Shown: positions 1-59,765 of the stretch, piece after piece | Layout of the letters: each line of letters opens with the position of its first letter | Numbering within the stretch: the stretch's first letter is position 1 | Origin: Agarophyton chilense | Lineage: Eukaryota; Rhodophyta; Florideophyceae; Gracilariales; Gracilariaceae | Direction of reading: 5' to 3' | NCBI GenBank assembly: GCA_030374765.1 | Contig: JARGXX010000099.1 | Location: 2,604,001 to 2,668,000 of the forward strand | DNA length: 64,000 nt | Position numbers and translations under genes: made by a program | Notes under the pieces: generated by a model | The model's database searches: none | The model's input: the letters and a program-made list of their open reading frames with translations, nothing else | Told to the model about the DNA's origin: nothing

Positions 1-1055
1 GCAGTGCGGACGGCCCATTCGCTTACCACGACGGACCACCACCCCGACTGGGGATCGTTCAAGAACGACGACCCCACATAGGTGAATACTGGGGGCAGCT
101 CAACGAAGCAACCCCAGCACGCCTCCAAGGAGGACCACCAGTCTGGGAGACTGACGTACCGACCACGTCGGTGAGCAGGCGCGATGCGCTCAATCTCCGT
201 GTTCTGGTACGGTACGAAATACCCGGTCCGGGCCCGCCAACGCCGCTCATCGCGGATGAAGTTCTGAAGGAAGTTCGAGCGCGACTGCCGCGGTTGGTAG
301 CGGAACTCTGCCCGAAGAATCGGTCGTGCCCAGCAAAGGGCTTCTTGCCGAGCGATCGGTGTGCCCCTCCAAGCGAGGGTTTCCAATCCGTTAAGACGGT
401 CACAGTACGACATTTCCCCGCGAGTGCAGTAAAGGTGGACGTCGAATTCGACCTCTGGCGGTATCGGAAACTCGAAAGGCGCCCGATGGTGCCTGAGATA
501 AGCGATCCGCACAAGCGCGGCTTGAGCCTCCGCAGAGGATTCACCGCGTCGGCGGAGTATGTGGTGTACCGGGATGGTGATACGATTACGCCAATCCCAG
601 GACGGGGTCACCACGCCGGGCAGGTCGCCCGGGAGCATCTCCGAATTATCGGTGTAGGATTGGATCAAATCCTCGTCACGGACAGCCAATGGGTGAAACC
701 AAGGCGCATACCGCAACCTCGCTGAGCCATGCCGAGTTCTCGGATTTGCACCCACAAGGGCGTCGTAGGTCGGCCACTGCGGTGGGTCCGCCTGTCCGCG
801 AAAGCGGGCGCCAATACGGTGGTCTTCGTACGCGAGGTTGGTAACATCCCCAGGGTGGGGCGCGGACCGGAAGCCGGTGGAACCGCCAAGGGCGGGAGTC
901 GCGGATGTGTTATGACGATCGGGGTTGGACCTGGTGCGTGTTGGTGTGCTGTTGTTGGAATCGGATGCGGAGAGCGTGCGTGGGATCCTTGGTGAAGGTG
1001 TGTTGGTTTCCGGAGACCAGGTGTCGGACGCGCTCTTATCATGACGAGCTGCCAT
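1..1055 (-). pseudogene. Gypsy-A copy 1: antisense accessory reading frame, partial and degraded
   Basis: Minus-strand relative of the 591-residue antisense frame at 32051-33826. Its start codon (1053-1055) lies 48 bp inside the 3' LTR, as in the other copy. The N-terminal part of the protein falls in the window and the rest is off the left edge. The copy looks broken, with a few breaks. Function unknown; see the whole-looking copy for the description. Confidence 0.6.
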
Positions 1056-9780: not shown

Positions 9781-10880
9781 TGGTTTAACCGACCTACCGG
9801 AAACTTCGGATACTCCCGAACCTGGGCCCGCTCCCTCAAGGGCCCAGTCAACGAACTCTTACAGAGTTACTCCCCCACCGGAGGTAATCAAGCCTCCTGG
9901 CTCTCCGCCTAAGGAGAGGGGAGGAGGACTTAGTTCCTTCGCAGGACGATGTTTCGGCGTCAGCCAGTCGCCGTAACAGGGAATCTAGTTCTCACAGTGA
10001 GACAGCGAGCCCGACTGAGCCGGCGACAGAGAAGTCACAACCCCAGCGTATGGGTAGCGACATCACCGCCGACCCAGCCGAGCACGACGTCAGAAAAGAT
10101 GACGAAAACCCGCCTAGGGAGAGTCGTGTGGAGAACTCCGCACCCGGAACGCCTACAGAGCCGACGATCACCCGCCGCCGCGGAAGAGACACTGAGGTGT
10201 TGCACACTCAAACCCCGCTTTCTCGGGAGCGAGCTGTGTCAGCGGACCCGCACGGAGAAGATCTCGACGACGAGGTTGACCAAATTCGGCTCTCCGTTAT
10301 GGAATGGGAATAGGAACTCCTAGGGAGACACTGGAACCCTCAGGAATGAGAAAGAAATGAGTGAGACCCGTCGGGGACAGCTCAGGAGAGTGCTAGCGCG
10401 TGCCGAAAGCGCCACCTCACATCCGCTTGCGGAGTGGCAACCGGCGCCCACGCATTTATGTGGCCCACGTCGAATGGAACCGAGCCAATCAAAAGGCTCT
10501 GACGACCAACCGTCGCGCAAACCGCCTCCGTCGCACGGCGCGTTGCACGAGAGCAACCTTCGTCCCCGTAGCTCGGGTTGACGTTGAAGTCTTACCCCCC
10601 TGAGATTGGGGACGCTACTTCGTCGCGTTTTTTCAACCGTCACGGAATCTAAGAACACCGTTGTCATCGGGAAGATCTCAGCTTTAAGAAGAACCCAAAC
10701 GTTGGCCGTTTTGACTCCGTAGACGGAAGTTACAACGTAGCCCACAGGCCACTCGGCGCCGTTTGGACGAAGTGCTGAGACCCGCTCGCAACACGGAAAA
10801 GAACCCACCGGGGTGTGTCTAGACCCTACGTTGACACCCTCAAGGGAACTAGAGCGTTCCAAGATGGAAGAGAAGCCCGA
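9781..10880 (+). other. Gypsy-B linker between integrase and chromodomain
   Basis: About 1.1 kb rich in proline, serine, threonine and charged codons (EPGPAPSRAQ-like text, many ACC, CCC and GAG codons). No domain is recognised. Gypsy-C has a similar low-complexity linker at about 20650-20930. The stretch is probably a disordered tether for the chromodomain; no separate gene is seen. Confidence 0.55.
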
Positions 10881-10887
10881 ACAGGGA

Positions 10888-11060
10888 AAAGTGTACCCGC
10901 AGGAATTCGTTATCGATCGCATCGTGCGTCACATCTACACCCCCGAGGGAGAAGCTCGCTACCAAGTCCGATGGTACGGATTCTCGCCTGATGAGGATAC
11001 AGTGGAACCCATTGAGCACCTTCCGAGGTCTAAGGTTTTATCCTATCACCGACGCGCTCG
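10888..11060 (+). pseudogene. Gypsy-B chromodomain at the end of pol
   Basis: Seen: EFVIDRIVRHIYTPEGEARYQVRWYGFSPDEDTVEPIEHL, the chromodomain pattern of an N-terminal strand, a YxVRWYGF core with aromatic residues, and a DxxxEPxEHL helix start. (The residues are given here in pieces: VIDRIV, YQVRWYGF, DTVEPIEHL.) In chromoviruses this domain binds modified histone tails and biases where integrase acts. Gypsy-A (about 31510), Gypsy-C (about 20940) and Gypsy-D (about 37300, minus strand) have matching ends. Confidence 0.85.
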
Positions 11061-11276
11061 GTTAACCTTGCCTCCAAGTCTGGATCGTGCCCAAGTCGGG
11101 TAAGCCACCGCGGGAACTGGTGTGGATGCGACCTCGAAGTGAGGAAGATGTTGGACCTCTGAAGAGGAATTGAGGAGAGTATCCCGAGGAACACGTATTG
11201 AGAGGGAATTTTTACTGGCCCTCGGCCTAGCGCCGTTAACCGGGGAACACAACACCGGTTATCGGGACAGTGTATA

Positions 11277-11484: not shown

Positions 11485-13380
11485 CTACGGAAAGCCCGAG
11501 GAGGGACCCGCCCCACTGTTGGGATTCTGACCCTGATGGTACGCCGAGGCGAAAGCCAACATCTGGCTCACATCCGTCATACCCGGGGGAATCGGAATGC
11601 CTGCGTTCACGAGGCCTTGTCGCACACTATCCGCTTCCGGAGTGGAAACCGGCGCCTGCGCAAGGGTGTTCACACCCCACCCGGGGGGAGCAGATGGACC
11701 GCTACCGGATGCATTCGCCGCCGCAGCTGAGGTCGTTCCCACTGGTTGGAAGGGTGCAGATGGCTCCACAGGGAGTACTCCACTAGGAGCTGGCACTTCG
11801 TTATCCAACGCTGGATCGTCCAGATCTACTGGAGGCTCGTACTCGTAATCGTCGGTATAAATGAACCCCGTCGGGTGTCCCACCGGCATCGGTCGAGGCG
11901 AGTCAATCAGCGCCCGTGCTTGCGCCTCGCTGATGCGAACCCCTTCTAAGGGATTGTAATAGACCCAGTTACCGGAGCCCGGATCGTACCGGCCAGGAGA
12001 CTTGTCTCGCGCGGATCCTTCCCCTGCGGGCTGATTTGCCACTGGAACTCGATCCCATTGGGTGTTGTCGATCACGTCCAAGATTGGATACAGGTCCTGC
12101 ACGTTGCTGGCCGAACCCAACGCTGGGACAAGGTTGATATGACGCATGATGGTCCGTAGCATCGGAGGAATATACCAGATACGGAAATGGTCATGAGCAT
12201 CCCAGAGGAGGTGCGCCGCTACGCGGGCTGCCCACTCGGCTGCAACGAGGGCCCAGTATCCCGAGTTCGGGTCGTGCATCAAACGAGACCCGATATAGTA
12301 GATGCATGGGGGCAGTTCAGCAAAGCATCCTCGGGGGACCTCGACCTTACTCCACCAAGCTGGAAGGGGCACGAATCGCCCAACCTTCGCCGTGTTACGG
12401 ATACGCTCCAGTTCCACGTGAGGATACGGGACAAAGAACCCGAAACGGGAGCGCGAGCGGCGCTCGAAGCGCACGCGTCGATCGAACCCATACTGGGTAA
12501 ACTGCCGTTGAAGGTACCTGAATTCAGCCCGAAGGATGGGACGACTCCATTGGAGCATATCTTCTCGGAGAGGAAAACCCGGTCCGCGGAACTCGGCTTC
12601 GGGAAAGGCTGCCAGGTTATCCCCGTAGGAGACCTCACCGTACGTGCGGTAATAGGCGACGTCGAACCCGTACTCCGGGGGAACCAGATGGTCAAAGCGT
12701 GACCTCTCCAATCGCTAGGAGGCCAGAGCCGCCATCGCTGCGCGCGCCTTGTCCAGGGACTCCCCGCGACTGCGGTATAGATACTGAGGTTCTATGGCTA
12801 CCCGCGCCCTCCAATCGGGAGAACGTACAACCTCAACAGGTAGGCCACCCGGCAATAAGCCGTCCTCCACGTAGGAGTCGATGAGCTCATCGTCGCGAAC
12901 CGCTGTCGGATGGAACCACGGAGCGCGGTAATATATCACCGGATCGGTAAGGGGACTCCACCTTCGAAAAGATTCGTTTGAGATCCAACCTCTGGAGTTT
13001 GCTACCAAGGGCATCGCATGAGCGGAGTTCCACGCCACCGCGTTAATGTCCAAATCCTCCTGAGGATGTCGGTTGCTCGCCGAGGCGGAAGGTTCGGTAC
13101 CTGACGGAGCCGCATCCAAACCGGAGAAATATCCACCCTGCTGGGGAGCTTCGTTGTCCGCCGGCGCGGAGGCCGATGGCCCCGAGAGTGGGTGGAGGAC
13201 GTATGGGTTCATTCCCTTGAGAGGGCTAGTCGAGACCGCTGTTGCGAGAAGTTGCTTATCGCCGAAAGTCGGAGGAGTAGAAGAAAGTTGTACCGATGTG
13301 CCGGTTTTGTGGCGATCCTCAGAAGTGGTGAAGGACCCCATTGGAAAAGAAGTATGTATAGTGATCGGAAAGTTAGACAC
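11485..13380 (-). pseudogene. Gypsy-B antisense accessory frame (unknown family)
   Basis: A minus-strand reading frame of about 630 codons, opposite to gag-pol, between pol and the 3' LTR, with about one break. Its start lies 43 bp inside the LTR. It is homologous to the 591-residue antisense frame of Gypsy-A along its length. Shared blocks include APWFHPxAVRD, FDVxxYRTxGExSYxD, RPILRAEFRY, GRxVxLPxWWS, GCFxELPP and LWYxPP/IWYIPP. An acidic middle with a FVYF/WVYY start and a short C-terminal helix ending DVxxMxxxxA are also shared. No signal peptide, membrane span or zinc motif is seen. I do not recognise the family. Confidence 0.75.
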
Positions 13381-13422: not shown

Positions 13423-14336
13423 TGTAGAGCAACGCCCAGTTAGGGGATACTTGAAGATGCAACTCATAGAATGAGGATTGAACCCTCCGAGGGTTATGAC
13501 TATGATCCCCTCTAAGGTGTGCTGAGGTGGCACTGTTTTCTGGTTCTATTTCGCCTATAAGGGAAAATTCGGATGGCCCATGGTTGGATTGGCCCCGTGA
13601 TACACGTGGCTTAATTTTGGCACCGTTTTTCGGATATTTGTAGAACGTTGGACTCTTGGGCCCTGACAGTTGGATCTCCACGTGTATGGCCCTGAGCAGG
13701 TGTGCACTACTGTAGAGTTCAGTTAGTGGGCCCTACTTAGGGAGATGAGATCTGATAGTCCGAAGCTCAGAGTAAATGGTAACCAAGGTTGGTCTTCGAT
13801 ACCTTTAGAGGTTCTTCGTCGCCATCGTTTCGGCCTTACAACCCGGAACGGGCTCTGGTTAGCAACGCCTGCGTAGGGACACGACTCTACTTGGAGAGTG
13901 CCCACGTTTGGGTTCCGTGCAACCACCCCCTTGGGACCGCTCAGACGACCTGCGTGCACGATACCCCGTGGGGGTTCTGCTTACTTGTTGCGTGCTTTTT
14001 GTGTTTCCTTTCGAGGACAGGTTTTCGCCCCTGTATTGGGTTTCTTTTGTTGTTTCGCCCCTTTTCTGGTTCTCCGGTCCAGTGCCTGTTAGTGCCCGAC
14101 CCTCGCCCCGTTTTTGCTCTTCGCCGGATTTTCCCCCATTCTTTGGGATACCCATACTCATTCCCGATCCAACGGTTTCTACCCCTCACCTCCGACGGTA
14201 CTGCCGGAATCCGCCGTCGGAGTTACACCCCACAACACGGGTGGAACGGAGGGCTCTGTCTCTGAGTCTGCCTGCCCCAGGGAGCAAGGCTTCGAACACC
14301 TTGAGAGCACTTCCCGTCGTCGGGTTTTGCTCCACA
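13423..14336 (+). repeat. Gypsy-B 3' LTR
   Basis: A 914-bp LTR from TGTAGAGC to TTGCTCCACA. It carries ACACGTGG at 13602-13609 and a second CACGTG near 13680. The right flank starts CTTTC and leads into AT-rich host-like DNA. It is the only complete LTR of this family in the window and serves as the reference for 1967-2723 and 2724-3550. Confidence 0.9.
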
Positions 14337-22079: not shown

Positions 22080-23115
22080 CGGGAGCGCATCTAAAGAGAT
22101 AGCGCTCAAGAAACCTTCGGGTGGCGCGAACCACAGTGGTTTCGCTAGCCGCAGCGAGCGGCAACAATCCAATCGGAAAGAGGCATCCGCACCCAACCGC
22201 TCATGGCGACTTTGTTCCTCTTTCGACTCCAAACCAATCGGTGGCGACGTGCCGAGCCGTGGCACCGCGCAGCCAACGTGGCACCATCTTGGTTCCCGCA
22301 GTCAGGCGAATGAGCGCGCACCTTGATAACCAAAACGGTCGACACTTCAAGGCGACCAACTGGATGCGGCTCAACCGAAAGGGTACGGAGGACACTCACC
22401 GGACCCCACGTGGCGTGAAGAACGGACAAAGGAGAAAGACCGCAGCGCGGCCAGCAGGAAAAAAAAGGCGACGGATGACTTCGCGACAGCCACCGCAAGG
22501 GAAACCACACTGGTCTAAGGAAGACAGAAGGAGGCTCGGCATCCCCGCCTAAATACCTCTGAGGTGGAACGAACCGTAGTGGCTGTCCGGACCGTAGCGG
22601 TTTGTCCAAGTCGAAGTATGAGGGGGCGTCGCCACGAGCGGAATCGCCCGGACGTGGCCCCTCCGGCGAAGGACCACTTGGTAAAGAGTCGAAGTCGATG
22701 GGGCGCGCAGCCGGCGTGGCACCATCGGGGTTCTCGTCTCCGGAGTCGCAAACGCCTGCCATTGCCACCAAAGCGGTCGGGACCGATGAGAAGACGACGA
22801 TCCGAAGGGGTATGGGCAACATGTGGCCAACACCGCGTGGAGCACCAGACCACCAAAGAAGCGCAAAACGCGGGCCGTTCGGTGGATGCACACGACCACT
22901 CGGTGCAAACGGAGGAAGAAGGGGCCCGTGAGAGCGTTCCACGAGGTAACGGCGGGTATTACCAAGCTGGTTGACTGAAGGCAAAGTCGCCCACCGATGT
23001 GCTTCGACCCAAAGTGGTGAGGCCACACGCAACAAAAGAAGAGAAACCCAGCGGTCGCGCTCAATCGTATCGGCGCGGTGGCGGCGGTCTCCAAAAGGCC
23101 GCATCCCTCCCCGCA
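22080..23115. repeat. Two diverged direct repeats in the Gypsy-C post-pol region
   Basis: Two units of roughly 440-500 bp repeat in the same direction. Paired landmarks are GCGCAGCCAACGTGGCACC near 22268 with GCGCAGCCGGCGTGGCACC near 22708, and the GTGGCGCGAACCACAGTGG region near 22113 with GTGGAACGAACCGTAGTGG near 22564. The units are well diverged. They lie between pol and the polypurine tract, in the slot where Gypsy-A and Gypsy-B carry their antisense frame. Confidence 0.65.
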
Positions 23116-23116
23116 T
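22145..23116 (-). other. Open antisense frame over the Gypsy-C repeat block (323 codons)
   Basis: The minus strand is open for 323 codons over GC-rich repeated DNA. The translation repeats itself (DGATPAAR and DGATLAAR) because the DNA does. It shows none of the blocks of the Gypsy-A and Gypsy-B antisense protein (no PWFHP, RPILRAEF or LPDWWS). It may be openness forced by base composition, or a different accessory protein. The long frame and its matching position are the only arguments for coding. Confidence 0.3.
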
Positions 23117-24593: not shown

Positions 24594-25481
24594 TGAAGAG
24601 CAACGTCCTCCAGGGAGGTTTTTGGGGACTTAAGTTTTTTCCGGAGCCTCCGGCGTGCAACCTCGTTATGAGTAAGAGTAATCCGTTTCACGGCGATGGC
24701 CGGAACGCCGGTGATGCACCGGCGGGACCGGGTGCCATACACGTGGCCGCAGCGCTCGCGCGACACGTGGCCGAAGCGCTCACGCGACACATGGCCGCCA
24801 GATTGGCCCTTTTTGTTAGACGGACATTTAGCTATTTAGGATAGACTTTATTTATTCTATTCTACGGTGACTACAGTACTTAGGCCGCCGGCCTCGCGGC
24901 CGCCGGTCCAGTAAAGTCTCGCCAACAAGAGTGATCTTGGTCTTCCAGATCTTGGCTCTGGGTCGAACCGCCTGCACGGATATACAACTCCTTACGGAGG
25001 GATTTCCCGTGGTGCACGGCTTCCCAACCCCCTTGGACATTCAAGCAGCCTTCGTGTGTTGGGTATCTATTCCCACTTTCGTGGTTCCGCCCGTGTATAC
25101 GGTTTGCTACACCCGGCAGTGCCGGCTATTCCCGAGTCCCCTCTTGCGACTCGTGGTCAACCTCGCCCTCTTGCCTCCGTTCCCGTTTTCCTTCCCTTTT
25201 CCTCCCCTTCATTGGGCAATTCCTGCTCTTGCGGCTCGCACTGACACCTGTCGTGCTCGCCACTCTCGTGGGTTTTGCCTCCTCAGAGGATACGCAAGCA
25301 CCGCTTCGGCGGATATTCTCGGCTTCTTTCAGCCTCCCTGCGCCCGTCGCGACGGTTCGGCTCCGGTTTACACCCGGCATTGCGCGCCGATCCCTAGGAG
25401 GGCTCTACCGCGCCGGTTACCTCGTGAGAGGAAGATCCGGACGTCTTCGTAGGTTTTCCCCCTTGGGGGCATTGTCCTACA
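24594..25481 (+). repeat. Gypsy-A copy 2, 5' LTR
   Basis: 888 bp, TGAAGAGC to CCTACA. It is 24 bp longer than the other two Gypsy-A LTRs because the unit around GCGCTCGCGCGACACGTGGC is present twice in tandem near 24750-24797. This also changes the number of CACGTG-like motifs. Confidence 0.92.
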
Positions 25482-28849: not shown

Positions 28850-30270
28850 CCCTCGAGGACCTGGACCTGAGTCATGTACCGGTCTCACACCGGGAGCGCT
28901 TACGCGGAATGCTACGCGATTTTACCACAATCTGGACGGCTCACTGGCTGAGATCAATACAACCGGACATCGGATAGACTTGCTACCGGACGCACGTCCG
29001 GTTGCACAACCCCCTTACAGGGCGGGACCGAAGGCTCGGGAGGAGGAAGAATTTCAGTTGGACAAGATGCTCCGTGCTGGAGTCATCGAGCCCGCCCAAT
29101 CTCCTTGGGCTTCACCGGTGGTGCTGGCCCTCAAGGCTGACGGCACGTGGCGGTTTTGCGTTGACTACCGCTGCCTCAATGCCGTCACCGTGAGGGACAC
29201 CTACCCGATTCCGCGCATGGACGAGTGTACAGACTCGCTCGGGGACGCTACCGTGTTTACGGCTCTGGATGCTAACTGGGGCTACTGGCAAGTCCCAGTC
29301 CGGGGAGAGGACCGAGACAAAACCGCGTTTGTTTGCCACTCGGGTTCCTACCGCTTCAAGCGGATGCCGTTTGGTTTAACCAATGCACCGGCCACCTTTC
29401 AAAGGGCAATAGACATACTGATGTCGCGTTTCAAGTGGCGCACGTGCCTTGTCTACTTGGGCGACATCATTGTCTTTTCCAGAAACCTGGACGATCACCT
29501 GACCCACGTGCGGGACGTGATGACCGTACTGCGAGAAGCAGGAATAACCCTCAAGTTGAGGAAGTGCGAGTTCTTCACCAACACGGTGAAGTATCTCGGG
29601 CACGTCATCCGTCCAGGACGGTTAATGATCGAACAAGTTCGTATCAAGTCCCTCTGCGAGGCGAAGGAGCCCCGTACTCAAACGGAGCTCCGATCCTTTT
29701 TAGGTCTGGTCAACGTCTATCGACGGTTTATAGCGAGTTTCTCGGATATCGCCGCTCCGCTAAACGCGCTACTGCGGAAGGGCCAGCCACCGAAGCTTGC
29801 GCCATTTACCACCGATCAGTCGGAATCTTTTCGCTCCTTGATTAAGGCAGTTACGACAGCTCCCATCCTATCCTTGCCCAAACCTGGGCTTCCCTACTCC
29901 ATCGACACCGACGCCAGCGACCACCAGGTGGGTTGCGCACTGTTCCAAACCACCCCCGAGGGGGACCGCAAACCAATCCGCTATTGGTCCCGCACGCTGA
30001 ACGTCCACGAGCGCAACTACTCGGTCTCCGAGAAGGAGTGCCTCGCAGTGGTCTGGGCGCTATCCATTCTGCGCCCATACCTCATGGGCGTTCATTTCAC
30101 CGTGTAAACGGACCATTCCTCGTTGAGGTGGCTGCTGAACATCGCAGATCCTTCTGGCCGCTTAATGCGGTGGCGCCTCCGCCTGGCAAAATTCGACTTC
30201 ATGGTCGTCTACAAAAAGGGTGTCCAGAACACCCAGGCAGACGCCCTCTCTCGATTACCTACGACAGGTG
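28850..30270 (+). pseudogene. Gypsy-A reverse transcriptase and RNase H region
   Basis: RAGPKAREEEEFQLDKML, GVIEPAQSPWASPVVL, WRFCVDYR, the FTALDAN-GYWQVP block, MPFGLTNAPATFQRAIDIL, LVNVYRRFIASFSDIAAPLN, DTDASDHQVGCALF and SEKECLAVVWAL appear in order. A C-terminal RNase H part ends near 30265 (NTQADALSRL). These are clear Ty3/Gypsy signatures. The region is part of a broken gag-pol. Confidence 0.88.
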
Positions 30271-31505
30271 AAGCACTTGCCGACCCGGAGGTCGACGAGA
30301 TCCCGTGCTTTACCTCCTTGGAAGGGGAAACACCGACGGAGTCGGATTGGCCCGAAACCGGGGAAGACACCATGGAAATGGATGAGCTACTCGCAGCGCG
30401 CGAGAATGAAACACCCGTACCCGTGGCACCATGGCTTAGAAGCCCCGCCGTGGTACCGCACCTCTCACGGGGTCTCTCCGATATACCGACTTTATCGGAA
30501 CCACCGGCAATGCCGGAAACACCTGGCCCTCGCGGCCAGCTACCCTTATAGGCGCCGCGCAGCGGTGTTTTTACCCGCCATGCGGTTAGCCCACCATCAC
30601 CCGTCGCTCCGTCTAAGGAGGGGGACGGGACCCGCTCAATCGCAGAAGCATCCCCGTCGCAACGGAAGTTTAACCGGACACCCCGGGCAAGGCTCCCGAG
30701 CGGGCATCCGGCATCGTCGCCGGACGTTACTCCGCTCCCGCGGGATGCGGCGGTCAATCCGACCGCCACGCAACCCCGAAAGGGGAACCGAGGCGCTCGA
30801 AGACCCGAAGCCAGGAAGCGAGACCCTACGGACGCTCCGCATCGCGTGGAAGCAACTAAGGGCTCCTCTCACATTCGCGGTCGCACACCGAGCGTTTCGG
30901 TCGATACCGGTACTCCGGCGGGCGCTGCGCAAGCAGGTCTAGCGAGCCACTCCGTTGAGAACGGTACGAACCCCATAGGGGAAAAGGGGCGCAACCACAA
31001 GTCGAAAACCGCCTCCCTTGCCGAACAATCGGAGCCAACCGTCCGCAACGGCCCGACCACCCGTCCTCAAGGTCACGTGACCCGGGCGGGAGATCTGACC
31101 AATGGGCACCCGGCATCCCGGTCATTGGCTGACCGTCACCCCGCGGAGGCGGATCGCCGGGACGGTGAACCACTCACCGCCCACGGCGCACCGCACAGCG
31201 GAAACTGCCCACCAATGGGAACGCTGCATGCCGCAACATAAGCGGAGGCCTCCGGCGAACCGTCACCAAGACGAAAGGACCCCCGCAAACTCGCGGTAAG
31301 GGCGGACTTCAGGGAAGCCCCTACCGCCCAGCGGAAAAACTACCCGGCCGCGCCGGCAACTTCCGCGAAGCAGTGCGGCAGCCCCGGCAACCCGGCAACA
31401 ACTGCAGAGCGGAATGACAGACCGGGTGACCCGGAACAGGTGACGACGAGCCCAGCACCACACGGCGCTGAGGCTCGGGGCACCACCACCCGGCAAGGCC
31501 GGCAA
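30271..31505 (+). other. Gypsy-A linker-like stretch before the chromodomain
   Basis: About 1.2 kb of GC-rich, proline- and arginine-rich text with no domain I recognise. It resembles in composition the disordered linkers that precede the chromodomain in Gypsy-B and Gypsy-C. Confidence 0.45.
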
Positions 31506-31720
31506 GTTTACGTGCAGGAGTACGTCCTCGACCGAATCGTCGGACATAGCTACGATGGGCACGGGGTGCTCCAGTAACGGACCTGCTGGTACGGATACGG
31601 GCCGGAGTGGGACACCCCGGAGCCCATCGAGCACCTTCCGCGCTCTGCGGTAATGCGATACCACCGCCTTGCGGGGACCGCACTCCCAGCCACGCTGGTA
31701 AACGCCCAAGAGGGATAAAC
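31506..31720 (+). pseudogene. Gypsy-A chromodomain region
   Basis: The plus strand reads QVYVQEYVLDRIVGHSYDG and later DTPEPIEHLPRSAVMRYHRL, matching the Gypsy-B chromodomain and tail (VIDRIV, TVEPIEHLPRSKVLSYHRR). It marks the C-terminal end of pol. The 330 bp up to the antisense frame hold a short purine-rich patch near 31935-31985 and nothing else recognised. Confidence 0.75.
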
Positions 31721-32050
31721 CGTGAACACGGAATGGAATGGCTGATGGCGCCACGCGCCATCTCCGTCCATGCCCCAACGCGGGGAAGGAAGCAACCGCT
31801 CACGCTATCCCAACGTCGTTGGTGGTCGTGCCAGTTACCTGGTCCGCGCGCGAAGCGCCCACCGCTAAACACGGAACTCCCAGCTAGGCTGGTTCCCTGC
31901 AACGCCGGAACCCCGGTTGAAGGCCGGTACCCCGGAAAGAAAGAAGTGGACTTGGGAAAGGGCGTCGGAAAGGCGACCCTCTTCTTTTATTTCTCACTAC
32001 TGGCAAGGGCGCCCTAGGGGCGCCGCCCTACATTCTACCGGAAGCTCCGG

Positions 32051-33826
32051 TCATTCCTTCGCACAAGGTGGACCCCTGCCCACGCGGTTGGCTAAGGCAT
32101 CCCGCATGGCGGCCACATCACCCGAGATCTCGGAAGGGCGAAGCCCCACCTCCCGAAGGAAGCGCGCGATGACCTCGCCCCGCTCCGCGCCAGCGGCAGT
32201 TGCGGGCGGGCCCGCCACCGATGGAGTCGGATAGGAATCCGTTCGCACGGCATCAGCAGCCCTGGATGGAGCCGCACCACCGTATTCAACGGACTCCTCA
32301 CCGGCCTCGCCGGACTCGTCATCCTCCATCGGAGCGTAACCCGGATCCTCCGGTTCGTTGTCCATCATCGGGTCACCATCCGCATCGTCGCGGTAATAGT
32401 CGCTCGAGTCGACATATCCTCGCGGGTTGTCGGCCGGGACTTCACGCGGCGCATGCCGGTTGGCTTCCGCTTCCTCGCAGCTGATCTCGTGGTAATCCCA
32501 GGGGTCGAAGTAAACGAAATCCCCCGCTAGCGCGGTATTCCTCCCGAATCCGGGGCCAGACCCGCGACGCGGTTGAGTGCGTTGGGAGTTCTCCAGCGGG
32601 ACCTCATCCCACTGGACCCCCTCCACAAAATCGAGGAGGCCCAGCATCTCTTCTTCGTTCGCCTCGCCCCCGAGGGGGATGCGCATGTCCAAACGGCGGA
32701 TCGCAGCCCACACACGCGGTGGCACGTACCACAATCGGTATTGGTCGTACGCCTCAGCGAGGATAAAAGCCGCGGTGCGGACGGGCCATTCGCTTACCAC
32801 GACGGACCACCACCCCGACTGGGGATCGTTCAAGAACGACGACCCTACATAGGTGAAGACTGGGGGCAGCTCAATGAAGCAACCCCAGCACGCCTCCAAG
32901 GAGGACCACCAGTCTGGGAGACTGACGTACCGACCACGTCGTTGAGCAGGCGCGATGCGCTCAATCTCCGTGTTCTGGTACGGTACGAAATACCCGGTCC
33001 GGGCCCGCCAACGCCGCTCATCGCGGATGAAATTCTGGAGGAAGTTCGAGCGCGACTGCCGCGGTTGGTAGCGGAACTCTGCCCGAAGAATCGGTCGTGC
33101 CCAGCATAGGGCTTCTTGCCGAGCGATCGGTGTGCCCCTCCAAGCAAGGGTTTCCAACCCGTTAAGACGGTCACAGTACGACATTTCCCCGCGAGTGCGG
33201 TAAAGGTGGACGTCGAATTCGACCTCTGGCGGTATCGGGAACTCAAAAGGCGCCCGGTGGTGCCTGAGATAAGCGATCCACACAAGCGCGGCTTGAACCT
33301 CCGCAGAGGATTCACCGCGTCGGCGGAGTATGTGGTGTACCGGGATGGCGATACGATTACGCCAATCCCAGGACATGGTCACCACGCCGGGAAGGTCGCC
33401 CGGGAGGATCTCCGAATTATCGGTGTAGGATTGGATCAAATCCTCGTCGCGGACAGCCAATGGGTGAAACCAAGGCGCATACCGCAACCTCGCGGAGCCA
33501 TGCCGAGTTCTCGGATTTGCACTCACAAGGGCGTCGTAGGTCGGCCACTGCGGTGGGTCCGCCTGTCCGCGAAAGCGGGCGCCAATACGGCGGTCTTCGT
33601 ACGCGAGGTTGGTAACATCCCCAGGGTGGGGCGCGGACCGGAAGCCGGTGGAACCGCCAAGGGCGGGAGTCGCGGATGTGTTATGACGGTCGGGGTTGGA
33701 CATGGTGCGTGTTGGTGGGCTGCGGTTGGAATCGGATGCGAAGAGCTTGCGTGGGATCCTTGGTGAAGGTGTGTTGGTTTCCGGAGACCCGGTGTCGGAC
33801 GCGCTCTTATCACGACGAGCTGCCAT
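32051..33826 (-). CDS. Gypsy-A antisense accessory protein, 591 residues, unknown family
   Basis: A single minus-strand frame that looks whole. It is opposite to gag-pol and fills the space between pol and the 3' LTR. The ATG at 33824-33826 was chosen because copy 1 has its start at the equivalent place; the frame stays open a further 80 codons into the LTR. Residues 1-110 are Ser/Pro/Arg-rich and probably disordered. Residues 115-415 form a conserved core rich in W, Y, R and P (APWFHPLAVRDEDLI, RPILRAEFRY, RYVSLPDWWSSLE, GCFIELPP, LWYVPPRVW). Residues 430-520 are strongly acidic. A short helix at 550-585 ends DVAAMRDALA. No membrane segment, signal or known catalytic motif is seen. Gypsy-B carries a diverged homologue in the same slot. 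Function is unknown; a regulator of sense transcription, a chaperone or a targeting factor are guesses. Confidence 0.75.
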   Translation of the reverse strand: MAARRDKSASDTGSPETNTPSPRIPRKLFASDSNRSPPTRTMSNPDRHNTSATPALGGSTGFRSAPHPGDVTNLAYEDRRIGARFRGQADPPQWPTYDALVSANPRTRHGSARLRYAPWFHPLAVRDEDLIQSYTDNSEILPGDLPGVVTMSWDWRNRIAIPVHHILRRRGESSAEVQAALVWIAYLRHHRAPFEFPIPPEVEFDVHLYRTRGEMSYCDRLNGLETLAWRGTPIARQEALCWARPILRAEFRYQPRQSRSNFLQNFIRDERRWRARTGYFVPYQNTEIERIAPAQRRGRYVSLPDWWSSLEACWGCFIELPPVFTYVGSSFLNDPQSGWWSVVVSEWPVRTAAFILAEAYDQYRLWYVPPRVWAAIRRLDMRIPLGGEANEEEMLGLLDFVEGVQWDEVPLENSQRTQPRRGSGPGFGRNTALAGDFVYFDPWDYHEISCEEAEANRHAPREVPADNPRGYVDSSDYYRDDADGDPMMDNEPEDPGYAPMEDDESGEAGEESVEYGGAAPSRAADAVRTDSYPTPSVAGPPATAAGAERGEVIARFLREVGLRPSEISGDVAAMRDALANRVGRGPPCAKE

Positions 33827-33858
33827 GCCGACTTCCTCTTCGAGGTGTTCGCCCTGTC

Positions 33859-33872
33859 TTAAGGGGGGGATA
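33859..33872 (+). other. Gypsy-A polypurine tract
   Basis: TTAAGGGGGGGATA directly precedes the 3' LTR. The same tract precedes the LTR of copy 1 at 1089-1102. Confidence 0.8.
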
Positions 33873-34736
33873 TGAAGAGCAACGTCCTCCAGGGAGGTTT
33901 TTGGGGACTTAAGTTTTTTCCGGAGCCTCCGGCGTGCAACCTCGTTATGAGTAGAAGTAATCCGTTTCACGGCGATGGCCGGAACGCCGGTGATGCACCG
34001 GCGGGACCGAGTGCCATACACGTGGCCGCAGCGCCCGCGCGAAACGTGGCCGCCAGATTGGCCCATTTGTTAGACGGACATTTAGCTATTTAGGATAGAC
34101 TTTATTTATTCTATTCTACGGTGACTACAGTACTTAGGCCGCCGGCCTCGCGGCCGCCGGTCCAGTAAAGTCTCGCCAACAAGGGTGATCTTGGTCTTCC
34201 AGATCTTGGCTCTGGGTCGAACCGCCTGCACGGATATACAACTCTTTACGGAGGGATTTCCCGTGGTGCACGGCTTCCCAACCCCCTTGGACGTTCAAGC
34301 AGCCTTCGTGTGTTGGGTATCTATTCCCACTTTCGTGGTTCCGCCCGTGTATACGGTTTGCTACACCCGGCAGTGCCGGCTATTCCCGAGTCCCCTCTTG
34401 CGACTCGTGGTCAACCTCGCCCTCTTGCCTCCATTCCCATTTTCCTTCCCTTTTCCTCCCCTTCATTTGACAATTCCCGCTCTTGCGGCTCGCACTGACA
34501 CCTGTCGTGCTCGCCACTCTCGTGAGTTTTGCCTCTTCGGAGGATACGCAAGCACCGCATTACGCGGATATTCTCGGCTTCTTTCAGCCTCCCTGCGCCC
34601 GTCGCGACAGTTCGGCTCCGGCTTACACCCGGCATTGCGCGCCGATCCCTGGGAGGGCTCTACCGCGCCGGTTACCTCGTGAGAGGAAGATCCGGACGTC
34701 TTCGTAGGTTTTCCCCCTTGGGGGCATTGTCCTACA
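33873..34736 (+). repeat. Gypsy-A copy 2, 3' LTR
   Basis: 864 bp, TGAAGAGC to CCTACA, with the target-duplication base run AAAAA after it. Besides its sense role it must hold the antisense promoter if the 32051-33826 frame is expressed, because that frame starts only 47 bp upstream of it. Confidence 0.93.
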
Positions 34737-34741
34737 AAAAA

Positions 34742-47258: not shown

Positions 47259-50199
47259 TCAAAGGTCTAGGTGTCGGACGCCACTGTCTTCACGGAACCT
47301 CTCGTGCTTCACACGGCAAAGTGGTTTGTTGAGCATATCGGCAGTCATGCAATCGGTAGGGCAGTAGAACAACACAATCGACTTGTCACGTAGAGCTTCT
47401 CGAGTAAAGTGAAAACGAATGTCGATATGCTTGGTACGCTTGTTAACAACGCCATTTCGGGCAAGGTCAATGCACCCTTGGTTGTCAACATATACAGGCG
47501 TTGGTTCAAAAAGCAACTTTACCGAATCGTCCACTTCTACTCCAATGACTATGCCGATGCCATTCCACAAACGCCTAAGCCAGATGGTCTCTTTGGAACC
47601 ACTGCACAGACTCACATACTCAGCTTCAGCACTAGACAGTGCAACCACTTCTTGCTGACGTGAACACCATGACACAGGACCTCCAGCCATCATGAACAAG
47701 TACCCACTGGTAGACTTGCGGTTTGCAACATCGCCTGCCCAGTCAGAGTCCACGTAGCCGTGAAGTGCCAAATCGGTGTTTAAGCCGTAGGTGAGACCAA
47801 ATGTACAAGTACCGTTGAGATAGCGAAGCACACGTTTGACTGCCTTCCAGTGAATCTCTCCAGGTTTCTCAACATACTTGGCAAGTTTGGACACCGCGTA
47901 TGAGATATCTGGACGAGTTCCTACAGACAAATACATGAGACAGCCAATTGCCTGACGATGCAGCACCTCCCTGAGAACATCCTGAATCGCAGACAGGTCC
48001 ATGCCAACTTCCATTGGAGTGTCAACTGGTTTGGACTGGTGCATGCCAAAACGTTCCAAGACCTTTTGTGTGTACGCAGACTGAGTCAGATACAACTCTC
48101 GCATAACTCTGTCACGGTGGATCTCGAATCCGAGTACCATGCGAGCTTGATAGAGGTCTTTCATGTGGAACCGAGACGACAGCTCTGCCTTTACACGATC
48201 CATTGTCTTCATGCTCGGACTTGCAATAAGCAAGTCATCAACGTATAGAGCAATCAGAACAACAAATCCCAGTATCTTTCCGCTGTACACACACTCATCT
48301 GCGTCATTTGGCGTCAACTGCATCTCCTCAACAAGGAACGAGTATATCTTTGCATGCCACTGTCTGGGTGCCTGTCGTAGCCCATAGATGGCTTTCTTCA
48401 AACGACACACCAGATCCTTGTTACCTTGCTGCACAAAACCTGTTGGCTGCTCCATGTACACTGTCTCCTCAAGGTCACCGTTCAGAAAAGCTGTTTTCAC
48501 ATCCATCTGGTGCAAATGAAAGTCTCGTACAGCAGTCACTGACAGAATCATCCTGATCGAGGTAAACTTAACAACAGGTGCATATGTTTCAGAAAAGTCA
48601 ACACCCTCGATCTGCAGGAATCCTCTAGCAACCATACGAGCCTTGTACCTGATAGTTGGTTCACCAGATGGTGCTGCTTCATACTTCTGCACATACACCC
48701 ACTTGGACGAAATCACGTTGCTGTCTGCTGGCCTTGGCACTAAGTCCCATGTGTCATGCTCAATTAGTGACTGGTACTCACTCTTCATTGCCTTCTTCCA
48801 TGCTTCGGAATCAGGACGTGACACAGCATCATCATATGACGACGGGGTGTCATCACTGGCAGTGAGTAGAGCAGTTGCACGCCACCATGAGCTCGGCTTC
48901 CTACGTTCACGCGTGGACCTACGAACAGGTTGTGTCTCATGCACTACAGGCTCAACTGGTGTATCAGCTGCGGAATCATCAACAGAGCTGTCAGAAGCAT
49001 CATCAGAGTCAGGCAAAGGCGCAGAAGGGTCATCATCGCTGGGTCCACTAGATGTGTCAGATGTAGAGGTATCATGTGGACTAGACATATTACTAAAGTC
49101 AATGTCTGCGTAGTCCTCTTCCTCATAGCTAAACTGGTTGTCTGAGCCCGAAAACTCATCAAACCGTACATCTCTTGACACAATCACCTTTTTCTTTTCA
49201 GAGTCCCACAACTTGTATCCGTGAGACCCTGGGGTGTACCCAATAAAGATACCTTCCACACCACGCTCCTCTAGCTTCTTCAGCTTATGATCCACAACCT
49301 TGTACCAGCATCGGCTCCCAAACACACGCAGGTTGCTCACATCAGGCTTCTGACCGTGCCACAGTTCATATGGTGTCACACTACTTGGAAGAGCTTTGCA
49401 AGTCACACGGTTGCGCACATACACTGCAACATTCAGTGCCTCAGCCCAAAAGTGCTTTGGCAATTTCTTGTGACATAACATCGATCTGACCAAGTCCATG
49501 AGTGTGCGGTTGAACCGTTCGGCAAGTCCATTCTGCTGAGGATTGTAAGGCATAGTTCGCTGATGCTCAATACCGTGACGTTCAAGTTCTTTGGTAAAAC
49601 GATGTGACAGATATTCACCACCGTTGTCAGTGCGCAATGCTTTGAGCACACTCTCACGTGCGGTGATGGTTTTCACTTGTCTGCCAGTTTGGTTTTGAAC
49701 AAACTTGAGCCACCTTAGGAACATCTGGAAGACCTCATCCTTAGTTTTGAGCATGTAGAAGAAGCAGAAACGACTGTGATCATCGATGAATGTGACGAAG
49801 TAGTGCGAGCCTCCCAAGGATTTCACACCTACTGGACCTGACACATCGGAGTGAACAAGTTCCAGTACGTGTTTTGCTCGTTCCCCCCTTTGCTTGGGAG
49901 TCGGAGCACGGGTTGCTTTTCCTACTACACATGAGCCACACACATCTGAATCCTGCGCAACGTCTACATTGAGCCCTGACACAACCTTGTTTCGAGCCAT
50001 ATGCTTGATACCATCCACATTCACATGAGCCATTCGAGCATGCCATAGTGACAAGTCCGACACAAGTGCGCTGTTTACATCTGTACACTGGTGTGCAGCA
50101 GTGCAAAGGTAGTATAGGCCTTTGACGCGGCGCCCCACGGCAACCACTTTTGACCCCTTGTATACACATACCTTCTCTTTTTCAAACACTACTTTGCAC
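47259..50199 (-). pseudogene. Copia-F copy 1, integrase, reverse transcriptase and RNase H part
   Basis: In reading order: the pre-integrase block LWHARMAHVNVDGIKHMAR with CGSCVVGKATRAP, the integrase core (LVHSDVSGPV, LRTDNGGEYLSH, NGLAERFNRTL), a Ser/Asp-rich linker (SNMSSPHDTSTSDTSSGPSD), and RT2-type reverse transcriptase (ETYAPVVKFTSIR, MDVKTAFLNGDLEE, LYVDDLLIAS). RNase H follows with VDSDWAGDVANRKSTSGY, SSAEAEYVSLCSGS, YVDNQGCIDLAR and TADMLNKPL. The order PR-IN-RT-RH defines Ty1/Copia. The text is nearly identical to copy 2. The coding region continues on the far side of the nested Copia-E. Confidence 0.92.
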
Positions 50200-50204
50200 C
50201 CCAG

Positions 50205-50878
50205 TCACAACGTGAGCGCAGGTTAGGTAAAGGAAAAGGAAGAAGAGGGGGAAAAGACGAGAAGAAGAGAAAAATAAAAGAAGAGAAACAAAGGAAGGTA
50301 GTCAGCCTTGACAATTTACTTCGATCGTTGGCGACCGTCATTGAAAACTATATCTACCTCGCACGCAGTTCCGCCGCCGGTGCTGACCGTCGGCGGGTCA
50401 CCCACGTCTCACACCTTGCCACTGTGCGACGAGGAGTTGCGCGCCAAAACAATTTCAAACATGAAGCATATCAAATAAAAACTCAAAAAAATCATCCAAA
50501 GTGGTGCGCCAGTGCCAACCACCCCGCGCAGCCCAGATTCGGCTGTTACGGCCAAACCCCGTATCCAGCCCACATTCGCACATTCTCTCCAACTGCATAG
50601 CCCGTGCTCATTCAGCGCTCTCGTCCAATCAAATCGCTCCACTTGGGCCGAAGCCCCAACACGCCCCATTAGAACCAGACCACTTGTCCATACCACGTTG
50701 CATGAGGGCATTTGCAGTAGCCAATCAGATGGCCGTTTCACGTTGAGATTGAGATGAGGCGCATATGCGTTTTTCCGCGGAGGGTGCCCAAAAGTGCCCA
50801 TGCTTAAATCCACTTTTTGTTTTCCACTATTTCCAACACTCCAAAGGGCTTGGGGGCACAGTCGACCAAACCTCAACA
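50205..50878 (-). repeat. Copia-E copy 1, 3' LTR
   Basis: 674 bp, reading TGTTGAGG...GTTGTGA on the minus strand. The first six bases (TGTTGA) also code the last cysteine and the stop codon of gag-pol. The core shared with Copia-F lies near 50697-50830. Confidence 0.95.
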
Positions 50879-53800
50879 CTCCTCCTCGACTGGTCGGCCA
50901 AGTCCAACACGGTCCGCGTTATTGTTGTGAAGACCTGGGCCAAGTGGTTTAGTTAAGAAGTCCGCATCATTGTCTTCACTTGGAACGTACGTCACATTGA
51001 TGTGACAATCCTTGACTAGTTCCCGAACGAAGTGCAACTTAACGTCAATGTGCTTAGCGCGACCCGACGGACAGCGTTCACCAGTTGCCCAGTCAATGGC
51101 GCACTGGTTGTCCGAACGAATGGGCACAGCACCTTGCACTTTCCATCCAATCTCCTTAAGCACACGCTTCAACCAAATGACCTCCTGACACGCAAGCGTC
51201 AAAGCATAATACTCGGCCTCGCCGGTAGACAACGCCACCGAAGCCTGTTTTCTTGCGCCCCACATACATGTCGCTTTGCCAAGCTTCACTAAGAAACCAG
51301 ACATTGACTTGCGATCACGCGTGTCCGCAGCGTAGTCAGAGTCAACGTACGCCTCCAGTTTCACCATGCCAGAGTGATAGTGCACACCATGTTCAGTTGT
51401 ACCGCGAAGGTAACGAAGAACCCGCTTTGCTGCCTTGTGACAGTAGGCCGTGGGCGATTTCTGAAAACGAGCCAAGATTAGGACGGGTGCTAATATATCC
51501 AACCGAGTTCTCAGTGCCAAATACAAAAGCGATCCAATGATCTGCTGGTACAGCTGAGTATCCTGGATGGATTTGTCTTTCTCAGATGTCCACCCGGTAA
51601 AAAAAGATTCTACCATAGGGGTGCATGCCGGCTTGGATCGCTGAAACCCGAAACGGCGCAACACGCTTTCCGTGTACAGTGACTGACCAAGATACAGCGA
51701 CACAGGTCGACCATCTGAATCTAAAGTCCATTTGAATTCAACGCCGAGGTACAAGTTCACTTCGTCCGCCACACGCAGCTCGTAAAACGACTTAAGCTCC
51801 TCCAAAATCGCATCACGTTCCATGGCAGAAGTTGTGAATATTAGCAAGTCATCCACATAAACTAGCACGAACGCATCCTCATTGCTCTCGTTTTGGCGGC
51901 GAAACACGCAAGGTGCACTCGGTAACTCTTCAAAACATATGCTTTTCATATCCTCGCATAGTTTGTTGTGCCATGCCAAGTGCGCTTGCTTCAGTCCATA
52001 GATAGCCTTGAGCAATTTGAAGCATCGTGAAGTCACGCCAGGTATACCTCGAGGTGACATGATCCACACATCTTCCTCAAGTTCGCCATTGAGAAACGCA
52101 GTCTTCACATCCACCTGTACCACATACATGCGCAAGCATAACGTCAGATACAAGAATATGCGAACCAAAGAGAACGAAACAACTGGTGCATAAGTCTCCA
52201 TGTAGTCCTGACCATATGTTTGGTGGTTTCCACCGGCTACAACACGAGCCTTAAAACGTTCAACTGACCCATCAGCATTGCGCTTTACCTTCAGTATGAC
52301 GTGAGTTGGTAGTGGTTGTGAAGCAGGAGAGTCATCAGGTTTCCAAGTTTGCTTCGACTCCAATGATGAAAACTCTTCATCTACGGCTGCTTGCCACATG
52401 GTACGCTCCTCCGCACTGGCGGACATTGCCTCCTTGAGTGAGGGCTCATCACTAGTAGTGACTTTGACTTGCGATGTACAGTGAGCAGACCCTGCCATGA
52501 ACCACCTCAGAGGTTGACGGCGCGTGCGCCGCGGGTAGCGTGGTTCCGTATCAGCGTTGGCAGATGTATCAAGGTCATCAGCAGCACTTTCGTCATCACT
52601 TTCGGAATCCTGTGCATCGTCTTCATTGCTGCCGGAGTCTGACTCCGACTGCCTGAGTGCTGGAATCAGGTGCGAGGATCCGTCATGAACCACCTCCTCC
52701 TCAACATTATCGACGGAGAAGGTATCCGATTCGTCATCAATGCTATCACATAATCCCATATCGGAGCTATAGTCAGCATCTGACGCACTTTCATCATCCA
52801 TGTAGTTGGCAAGAGATGATGCGCCAGGGAACTTGGATTCATCAAAAGTAACATGTCGTGACTCAATAATACGCGGAGTACCGTCATTATCAACGACGAG
52901 TACCTTGTACACACCATGCTCAAGAGTCTCCAAGTATACTCCCTCAAGTGCACGAGACTCGAACTTGGGTCCACGCGGAGTCCTTAGCACGAATGCAGTG
53001 CATCCAAACACACGCACGTGCTTCAACAAAGGTTTATTTCCAGTTACCAGAAAGTAGGGACTGTTGTTAACAGTAGAATGTTGCACTCGATTACGCACAA
53101 AGATAACATGTTTCAGCGCATATGGCCACAAACATTCTGGTAGATCGGCTTGGATCAGCAACGATCGAGCAGCTTCCACCATGGTACGATTGATGCGCTC
53201 AGCTATAGCGTTGTGTTCGGGGGTGTATGGAGCAGAGAAAGAAGTGAGGCCATGTTCTGCTGCCAAGTTCTCTTGCAGGGCAATATATTCTTCTGCACCG
53301 TCCGAGTGCAAACTTTTGATATGCACTCCTCCAAGCTGCTTAAACTTTGCCGCAATACCCACAAACACATCACTAAGAGCACTGCGATGGATCACCAGAC
53401 CTAGGAACACATACCGTGAGTGATCATCGAGGAATGTACATGCATATTGAAATTTGTCCGGAAAAGACTTTTCCAGAGGACCTACAATATCCGAGTGCAC
53501 AATGTCACCAACCGCGGATGCATGTTCAAAGTGACCTGGGAACGGAAGCTTATGAGCCTTGCCAAGTCGACATGCTCGGCATACCTCCTCCATGTCACAC
53601 AAGTGCGGCACTCCATCTGCGTACTTGTGTACATGTTGCAGATCACGTTGGTTGATGTGAGCCAGTCGTCGGTGCCACAGTTGAGTCTCCGTAGACTTTG
53701 TCGAAAGCGCAAGTTCCACGCCAGCATGCCCTAAAGGTTGAGGCAGTGTGTACATGCGAGATACCTTGTCACGATCACCATTGCCCACCTCAAAACCATT

Positions 53801-55174: not shown

Positions 55175-56069
55175 ATTTCAGTCTGTTATCCACGAAGCAG
55201 ATAGAACGGAACCAAACGAAATTAATTAGTAGAGGGAAGCAGAGTGAGGGACTCAATGCCTTGGGAAGTTTAAGAAAAGGGCCACGAGCAGTGATGAATT
55301 CGTGGCCGAGCTTGCCCGAACGGAGTATCCCAACTCAAACGTTCGACAGCGAGGACGACAGCGGAGACTTTTGACGTAGCCTGCAACGCTCACCGAGACG
55401 CGTCTCGTACGCGATCACAAGCGGAGCTCGGGTGCTCCCACGCTTGGAGTATACTCACGGGCAGTGGCAGAAGGCGTACCCGGAACAGACAAACTTCTCG
55501 ACTTCGGGTTGAAACTTCTTGATTGAACCTACCGAGACTTGCTCGAGGTAGGCGGGCGCACTGGCGGGAGAAACTACCTCCGCTACCCTAAAGGATGATC
55601 CCCTGGACCCTGGTTACTCTCTCCAGGTGAGGTACGCTTTGATTACCTACCGAACTCTGCGCACTTCAGAGTCCGGCGCTTTTAGTCCCTACGAGGCGTC
55701 CCAAGGAGGGGTGTCGTCAAGATACACTTCCCCCAGTTGACCCAAGCTAGCCTCTTGCGGGAAAGTAGCGCGGTCGTGCGGTGTAGTACGGTTGCTCCTA
55801 CACTTCCAAGCCCAATTCATCGACCTCCGTACTCTACGGACGGAGAGCAGGATTTGGCAGACTTCCCGGGCTCGTGCCAAGGGGGTACTAACAAACGCGA
55901 TATGTTTTCGCCACCAAGGAGGAAGTCCGCAGGGTACACGCCTGTCGCAAAACAAAATAACTTCTTGAATCCAGATGAGCGTTAGTCGTAGATCGCGCAC
56001 CTGTCGCAGTAGGGAATCTTCTTGAATCCAAATAAATGTTAGTAGAGCGTGACGTCTGCGAAGAGTCGA
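55175..56069 (-). other. Copia-E copy 1, leader
   Basis: About 0.9 kb between the primer site and gag; no gene is recognised. It is conserved with copy 2 (45135-46045). It probably carries packaging signals and the 5' untranslated region. Confidence 0.6.
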
Positions 56070-56087
56070 CGCTCTGGGCCCATAACC
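56070..56087 (-). other. Copia-E copy 1, half-tRNA primer-binding site
   Basis: Minus strand GGTTATGGGCCCAGAGCG, directly after the 5' LTR. It is complementary to the initiator tRNA-Met anticodon arm (CTGGGCCCATAACC), so a tRNA half cut in the anticodon loop is the likely primer. Confidence 0.87.
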
Positions 56088-56761
56088 TCACAACGTGAGC
56101 GCAGGTTAGGTAAAGGAAAAGGAAGAAGAGGGGGAAAAGACGAGAAGAAGAGAAAAATAAAAGAAGAGAAACAAAGGAAGGTAGTCAGCCTTGACAATTT
56201 ACTTCGATCGTTGGCGACCGTCATTGAAAACTATATCTACCTCGCACGCAGTTCCGCCGCCGGTGCTGACCGTCGGCGGGTCACCCACGTCTCACACCTT
56301 GCCACTGTGCGACGAGGAGTTGCGCGCCAAAACAATTTCAAACATGAAGCATATCAAATAAAAACTCAAAAAAATCATCCAAAGTGGTGCGCCAGTGCCA
56401 ACCACCCCGCGCAGCCCAGATTCGGCTGTTACGGCCAAACCCCGTATCCAGCCCACATTCGCACATTCTCTCCAACTGCATAGCCCGTGCTCATTCAGCG
56501 CTCTCGTCCAATCAAATCGCTCCACTTGGGCCGAAGCCCCAACACGCCCCATTAGAACCAGACCACTTGTCCATACCACGTTGCATGAGGGCATTTGCAG
56601 TAGCCAATCAGATGGCCGTTTCACGTTGAGATTGAGATGAGGCGCATATGCGTTTTTCCGCGGAGGGTGCCCAAAAGTGCCCATGCTTAAATCCACTTTT
56701 TGTTTTCCACTATTTCCAACACTCCAAAGGGCTTGGGGGCACAGTCGACCAAACCTCAACA
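56088..56761 (-). repeat. Copia-E copy 1, 5' LTR
   Basis: 674 bp, the same as 50205-50878 by eye over its full length. The target duplication CCCAG follows at 56762-56766. Confidence 0.95.
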
Positions 56762-56766
56762 CCCAG

Positions 56767-59745: not shown

Positions 59746-59765
59746 CTCCCCCTCTGTCACTGACA

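What the first reader, a model, noticed from the sequence alone, without database searches (positions are those of the whole stretch)
32051..33826. Conserved antisense protein in two Gypsy families, family unknown
Seen: Gypsy-A has a whole-looking 591-codon frame opposite to gag-pol. Gypsy-B (11485-13380) has a diverged homologue in the same slot, with many shared blocks (APWFHP, RPILRAEFRY, LPxWWS, GCFxELPP, FVYF/WVYY, a C-terminal DVxxM helix). Similarity at this distance, with the DNA clearly diverged, suggests selection for the protein. Known: some plant Ty3/Gypsy elements (for example Grande and RIRE2 types) carry antisense frames, and HTLV-1 has HBZ. I know of no match to this sequence. 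Inference: an accessory protein expressed from the 3' LTR.
Basis: partly seen in the sequence, partly recalled or inferred. Interest (0 to 1): 0.88.

Follow-up and report, generated by a model that had tools for sequence, protein, structure and literature searches.

The report
Antisense gene in seaweed jumping elements
Three families of gypsy-type jumping elements, in what is likely a red-seaweed genome, carry a long open frame on the strand opposite their other genes whose protein sequence is conserved while its silent positions are not; it is predicted to be a helper protein made from the element's own end, and its role is untested.

Summary
The 591-codon frame (32051-33826, minus) lies between pol and the 3' LTR of a Ty3/Gypsy element. 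Homologous frames sit in the same slot of two further families of the same genome: B (window) and C (L061). 74, 102 and 68 matches were scored for A, B and C (lower bounds); 49, 66 and 21 have no stop in the matched part. Between families the core protein is 37-44% identical; codon positions 1 and 2 are 55-65% identical, position 3 only 28-34%, so selection acts on this frame, not on a sense frame. Pfam, NCBIfam, PHROGs and PDB sequences gave no usable match. Named relatives are from Gracilariopsis, Agarophyton and Gracilaria. The start codon lies 46, 81 and 24 bases from the LTR edge in A, B and C, so a promoter would have to lie inside the LTR; a directional motif, GCCACGTGKAT, recurs in all three LTRs. 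I read it as an accessory protein, most likely nuclear and regulatory: a new protein family of a known kind (antisense ORFs of LTR retrotransposons). Expression, fold and function are untested; the structure tool failed and was then switched off.

The parts
32051..33826 (-). antisense frame of family A, 591 codons from ATG
33827..34066 (-). in-frame upstream extension into the LTR (to ATG 34066, 671 aa), with a basic run RRRLRKKLK; not shared by all copies
   Evidence: open frames of 612-679 aa
33873..34736 (+). 3' LTR of element A (TG...CA); would hold the antisense promoter (inferred)
24594..25481 (+). 5' LTR of element A; AAAAA flanks the element on both sides
33859..33869 (+). polypurine run TTAAGGGGGGG just before the 3' LTR
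34016..34026 (-). motif GCCACGTGTAT in the LTR, 190-200 bases upstream of the aORF ATG
31986..31991 (-). AATAAA, 62 bases after the start of the aORF stop codon (possible poly(A) signal); in 28 of 30 A loci
28980..30107 (+). reverse transcriptase and RNase H of element A
11485..12711 (-). family B antisense frame, C-terminal piece (408 aa)
12715..13380 (-). family B antisense frame, N-terminal piece (ATG at 13341); an in-frame stop separates it from the other piece in this copy
13423..14336 (+). 3' LTR of element B
13600..13610 (-). motif GCCACGTGTAT in the LTR of B, 259-269 bases upstream of the aORF ATG
10813..11103 (+). chromodomain at the end of pol in element B
   Evidence: Pfam Chromo, 3.3e-8
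1..1055 (-). part of the antisense frame of a second family A copy, cut by the window edge

Best explanation
A minus-strand frame between pol and the 3' LTR of three Ty3/Gypsy families encodes one conserved protein family, which is likely expressed from a promoter inside the 3' LTR and most likely acts as a nuclear accessory regulator of the element. Shown: position and convergent orientation without overlap; homology between the families; the codon-position signature of protein selection; no matched known domain; no strongly hydrophobic segment in nine members; a shared directional motif in the three LTRs. Inferred: transcription starts in the U3 part of the LTR, because the start codon is only 24-81 bases from the LTR edge, and ends in the 300-380-base gap after the frame (AATAAA in A and C, none in B). 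Inferred with the least support: the protein binds chromatin or the LTR and tunes the element's own transcription or silencing, the tryptophan- and tyrosine-rich core binding and the acidic tail with its end block recruiting partners.
For: Position and gap. Homology. Codon positions. Within-family constraint: (binomial p for shared variants: 0.022 A, 0.011 pol-side sample, 7e-5 B). LTR edge. Motif: 6 in the window against 0.06 expected, 0 of 1000 shuffled trios, 25 of 30 A and 28 of 30 B loci and 2 of 6 C loci (the other four C loci hold under 200 bases upstream). No hydrophobic segment, acidic tail (pI 4.1-4.8 in 8 of 9, 5.1 in P0004). Analogy: nuclear Grande gene23 and predicted DNA binding of TRP28 (PMC7264820, PMC11963269).
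Against: No transcript, protein or fold was seen. No clear nuclear-localisation signal in A, B or C. N-terminal charge varies between members (pI 4.5-11.2). The motif was first seen by eye, is built on the palindrome CACGTG, and could serve the sense promoter. AATAAA is absent from B (0 of 30). Singletons are near neutral, and 4 of 5 further A copies have a frameshift, though decay after insertion would explain both. Antisense RNA could trigger silencing of the element, a cost.
Confidence: 0.45

Rival explanations
1. The protein would be a particle, packaging or nuclear-import factor that works beside Gag and Pol, not a regulator.
For: The frame is element-bound and conserved like a working gene; a disordered, proline-rich tail with a small end block would suit assembly or docking.
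Against: No Gag-like match by profile comparison (probability 0.2) or Pfam; a structural protein made from the antisense strand would be unusual (general knowledge).
Confidence: 0.25
2. The gene was captured from the host or is also kept as a host gene, and its function is that of an unknown algal protein.
For: Gracilariopsis chorda and Gracilaria domingensis relatives are annotated as ordinary hypothetical proteins.
Against: Multi-copy in three families of this genome; no clear single-copy host relative was seen, but only best-scoring candidates were scored and the contexts of the other species' copies could not be read.
Confidence: 0.12
3. The antisense RNA, not the protein, is what matters, for example by pairing with the genomic RNA.
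For: Antisense RNAs regulate other retroelements (passages of PMC7264820 and PMC12786077).
Against: An RNA role does not predict position-3 freedom with positions 1 and 2 held.
Confidence: 0.06
4. The frame is a by-product of a sense-strand gene or of base composition.
For: A sense shadow frame also aligns between families, and sense frames of 216-271 codons overlap it in A and C.
Against: The aORF frame scores best in 3 of 3 comparisons; its third positions are the free ones, the reverse of what the in-register sense frame would show.
Confidence: 0.02

Closest known systems
Antisense ORFs between pol and 3' LTR of plant Ty3/Gypsy elements (aORF-3R: Grande gene23, RIRE2, Retand TRP28, PvRetro13) and fungal Boty (PMC7264820, PMC11963269)
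   Same: Same slot, same orientation, present in many copies, conserved, function unknown; Grande's protein is reported as nuclear.
   Different: No match to Pfam, which includes PF04195 (TRP28 domain), at E up to 5 in 15 members; carriers B and C have a chromodomain whereas Retand is described as non-chromovirus; host likely a red alga; the start codon sits at the LTR edge, so the promoter would be in the LTR, whereas gene23 is reported to have a promoter upstream of the gene.
HTLV-1 HBZ (antisense protein from the 3' LTR; from PMC7264820 and PMC11963269 and recall)
   Same: Minus-strand gene that would be read from the 3' LTR; acidic part and a regulatory role proposed.
   Different: No bZIP or other Pfam match; no sequence relation claimed; transcript not shown.
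VANC anti-silencing proteins of VANDAL DNA transposons (recalled, from no call)
   Same: A transposon protein without transposition chemistry that acts on short motifs of its own element: the model for the boldest reading here.
   Different: Different element class; no sequence comparison made; motif binding here is only a hypothesis.

Membership tests
Antisense aORF (aORF-3R) of LTR retrotransposons | frame between pol and 3' LTR, antisense to gag-pol | tested here: met
   A and B in the window, C in L061 (the C LTR edge is inferred from the polypurine run, its 5' LTR was not fetched)
Antisense aORF (aORF-3R) of LTR retrotransposons | present and conserved in many copies of the family | tested here: met
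   17 of 17 pol-side A copies that were read have it; of all 40 found, at least 15 are whole, 5 have stops, 4 a frameshift, 16 were not examined
Antisense aORF (aORF-3R) of LTR retrotransposons | antisense transcription from its own or an LTR promoter | not testable with these tools
   only geometry and a shared LTR motif
Retand TRP28 proteins | TRP28 domain (PF04195) | tested here: not met
   no Pfam match to it in any of 15 members, E up to 5
Retand TRP28 proteins | carried by non-chromovirus elements | tested here: inconclusive
   Pfam chromodomain in B and C, not in A (A only resembles B there over 32 residues); no RT tree was made
Grande gene23 | sequence homology to gene23 | not tested
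   gene23 sequence was not fetched
ENV-like aORF | sense orientation and a transmembrane segment | tested here: not met
   antisense; best 19-residue hydropathy 0.91-1.45 in nine members
HBZ-type antisense regulator | bZIP domain | tested here: not met
   no Pfam bZIP match
HBZ-type antisense regulator | expressed from a promoter in the 3' LTR | tested here: inconclusive
   start codon 46, 81 and 24 bases from the LTR edge; no RNA data

The most novel reading that the evidence does not exclude
Red-algal Ty3/Gypsy elements evolved, apart from the TRP28 and gene23 proteins of land plants, a self-recognising regulator: an antisense gene driven by the U3 of the 3' LTR, whose protein binds the GCCACGTGKAT motif of that same LTR and lifts or sets the silencing of its own family.
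Probability: 0.2. Interest if true: 0.78.

Novelty: new variant of a known kind. Interest (0 to 1): 0.55.

Why it matters
Antisense genes of LTR retrotransposons have been described for years, mostly in flowering plants, without a known function. A protein family with no match to the known ones, kept across three element families and found in records of three seaweed genera, would suggest that the arrangement itself (a convergent gene read from the 3' LTR) has been useful more than once. It gives sharp predictions (minus-strand RNA from U3, binding to one 11-base motif) in a genome with many open copies.

Tried and rejected
Sense-strand explanation: rejected. Envelope: rejected on orientation and hydropathy. 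Copy of Gag: no support (one comparison). Known domain: Pfam, NCBIfam, PHROGs (5 proteins) and PDB sequences (none at E up to 1) gave nothing usable; the only library hits were one member each, E 0.15 (SH3-A_UBE2O) and 0.28 (PRK04758.1). Plasmid records and viral contigs (25 pattern matches, none confirmed) held no relative. The pol 3' end of A, meant as a coding control, itself looks unconstrained (dN/dS 1.01 and 1.10), so only the LTR serves as control. The promoter scan is for bacterial promoters and says nothing here. Print: searches listed no title or abstract describing such a frame in red algae; the library is open-licence only and supplements were not searched. PMC7264820: parts 1 and 2 of 3 of the text seen; PMC11963269: part 1 of 5 and passages; PMC12786077, PMC2864245, PMC12477816: passages only; the rest listings only.

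Full report
What is there. The frame 32051-33826 on the minus strand is open for 591 codons from an ATG. It lies inside a Ty3/Gypsy element with LTRs at 24594-25481 and 33873-34736 and with RT and RNase H on the plus strand. AAAAA flanks both ends, and a polypurine run stands just before the 3' LTR. The two LTRs of A differ at 22 positions plus 26 gap columns in 892. gag-pol and the aORF converge without overlap: the gap is 332 bases in A (measured on copy L003), 381 in B and 300 in C. Pfam finds a chromodomain at the end of pol in B and C, not in A, where only a 32-residue stretch resembles B.

The genome. The window is part of a 79.8-Mb assembly in 135 contigs. Named protein relatives are from Gracilariopsis chorda, Agarophyton chilense and Gracilaria domingensis; an Agarophyton protein is 89% identical to the C-family protein, and Agarophyton is in Gracilariaceae (that the other two genera are too is recalled). 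The host is therefore likely a gracilariacean red alga. This is inference.

Copies. Family A gave 74 scored matches, 49 without a stop. B, searched with its 408-aa piece, gave 102, 66 without a stop. C, found with P0004, gave 68, 21 without a stop over the matched part. These are lower bounds, and the copies were picked by protein score. As a sample not picked by the aORF, 40 A copies were found with the DNA of 31100-32040. Comparing coordinates by eye, 19 of the 40 are in the list, 14 of them stop-free and 5 with stops. Five of the other 21 were fetched: one is whole and four have a frameshift. So at least 15 of 40 are whole, 5 have stops, 4 a frameshift, and 16 were not examined.

Selection. 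Between families, over 311-313 core codons, identity is 0.55-0.57 at position 1, 0.56-0.65 at position 2 and 0.28-0.34 at position 3; amino-acid identity is 0.37-0.44. The aORF frame is the best tblastx frame in 3 of 3 comparisons. Within families, variants were compared with the expectation from the observed mutation spectrum. Variants shared by at least two copies give dN/dS 0.61 (A, 26 of 30 copies after near-identical ones were dropped), 0.48 (16 of 17 copies of the pol-side sample, 12 of the 17 also being in the first set) and 0.26 (B, 30 of 30, C-terminal part only). Singletons give 0.69, 0.79 and 0.71. A non-coding LTR stretch treated the same way gives 1.12 and 1.11, and the pol 3' end of A 1.01 and 1.10. 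Binomial p for the shared variants is 0.022, 0.011 and 7e-5. Pooled pairwise dN/dS is 0.50 (A) and 0.38 (B) in the aORF frame; the opposite-strand frame that gives 0.61 and 0.43 holds 16-20 stops on average.

The protein. Three searches of 5.8 billion proteins gave 5, 10 and 25 relatives, each scoring only the 8,000 or fewer candidates that shared most words. The conserved core is about 320 residues with 11-17 tryptophans in nine members. The C-terminal part has a pI of 4.1-4.8 in eight of nine, 5.1 in P0004; the N-terminal part varies (4.5-11.2). A small block near the C-terminus recurs. No library named the family. A maximum-likelihood tree of 16 cores groups A with a Gracilariopsis chorda protein and P0001 (100/99), B with the unnamed P0006 (97/97), and C with two Agarophyton chilense proteins (100/100); 7 of 13 inner branches are unresolved. 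If inheritance was vertical, the families split before those genera did.

How it would be expressed. The start codons lie 46 (A), 81 (B) and 24 (C) bases from the LTR edge, which leaves little room for a promoter outside the LTR. The C edge rests on the polypurine run alone, since its 5' LTR was not fetched. The LTRs of A, B and C do not align (best E 0.027 over 16 bases), yet all carry GCCACGTGKAT on the aORF strand, 190-269 bases upstream of the start codon: 6 in the window, all in LTRs of A and B, against 0.06 expected; 0 of 1000 shuffled trios share such an 11-mer; it is in 25 of 30 A, 28 of 30 B and 2 of 6 C loci, the other four C loci holding under 200 bases upstream. I saw the motif by eye first. 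In A the part of the LTR next to the frame varies less than the far part; B shows no such gradient. AATAAA follows the stop at 62 bases in A (28 of 30 loci within 130 bases) and at 55 in C, but not in B (0 of 30).

Interpretation. Antisense ORFs in this slot are a known kind (PMC7264820, PMC11963269), with nuclear location reported for Grande and DNA binding predicted for TRP28. By analogy, and because nine members lack a membrane segment and have an acidic tail, I favour a nuclear regulator of the element. Direct evidence for that last step is thin: no nuclear signal was found in A, B or C, and neither RNA nor fold could be examined. What is new is the protein family, its likely host group, its carriers and the LTR-edge geometry with a shared motif.

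Noticed in passing
22145-23116 (-), in a Gypsy element with LTR repeats at 15267 and 23246: A fourth Gypsy element has an unrelated 323-codon antisense frame in the same slot; 4 matches in the genome, 3 stop-free, 92% identical; no relation to the family A protein.
   Followed up: partly
1-1969: The end of a second family A element, 97% identical to 32772-34739, lies at the window's start.
   Followed up: partly
1967-3550: An inverted copy of the B LTR (1967-2723) abuts the 5' LTR of B, which lacks its first 89 bases, so the two form a near-palindrome.
   Followed up: no
L061:9341-9736 (+): Part of a further, diverged relative of the antisense protein (49% identical to A over the piece) lies just beyond the C element, possibly a fourth family.
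   Followed up: no
47259-63392 (-): A cluster of Copia elements on the minus strand, with direct repeats that suggest nesting.
   Followed up: no
L001-L030, pol 3' end (about 870 bases): The last part of pol in family A shows no sign of constraint (dN/dS 1.01 and 1.10), and Pfam finds no chromodomain there in the one copy tested.
   Followed up: no
33827-34066 (-): In this copy the frame runs on into the LTR and would add a basic run (RRRLRKKLK) at the N-terminus; open-frame lengths differ between copies.
   Followed up: partly
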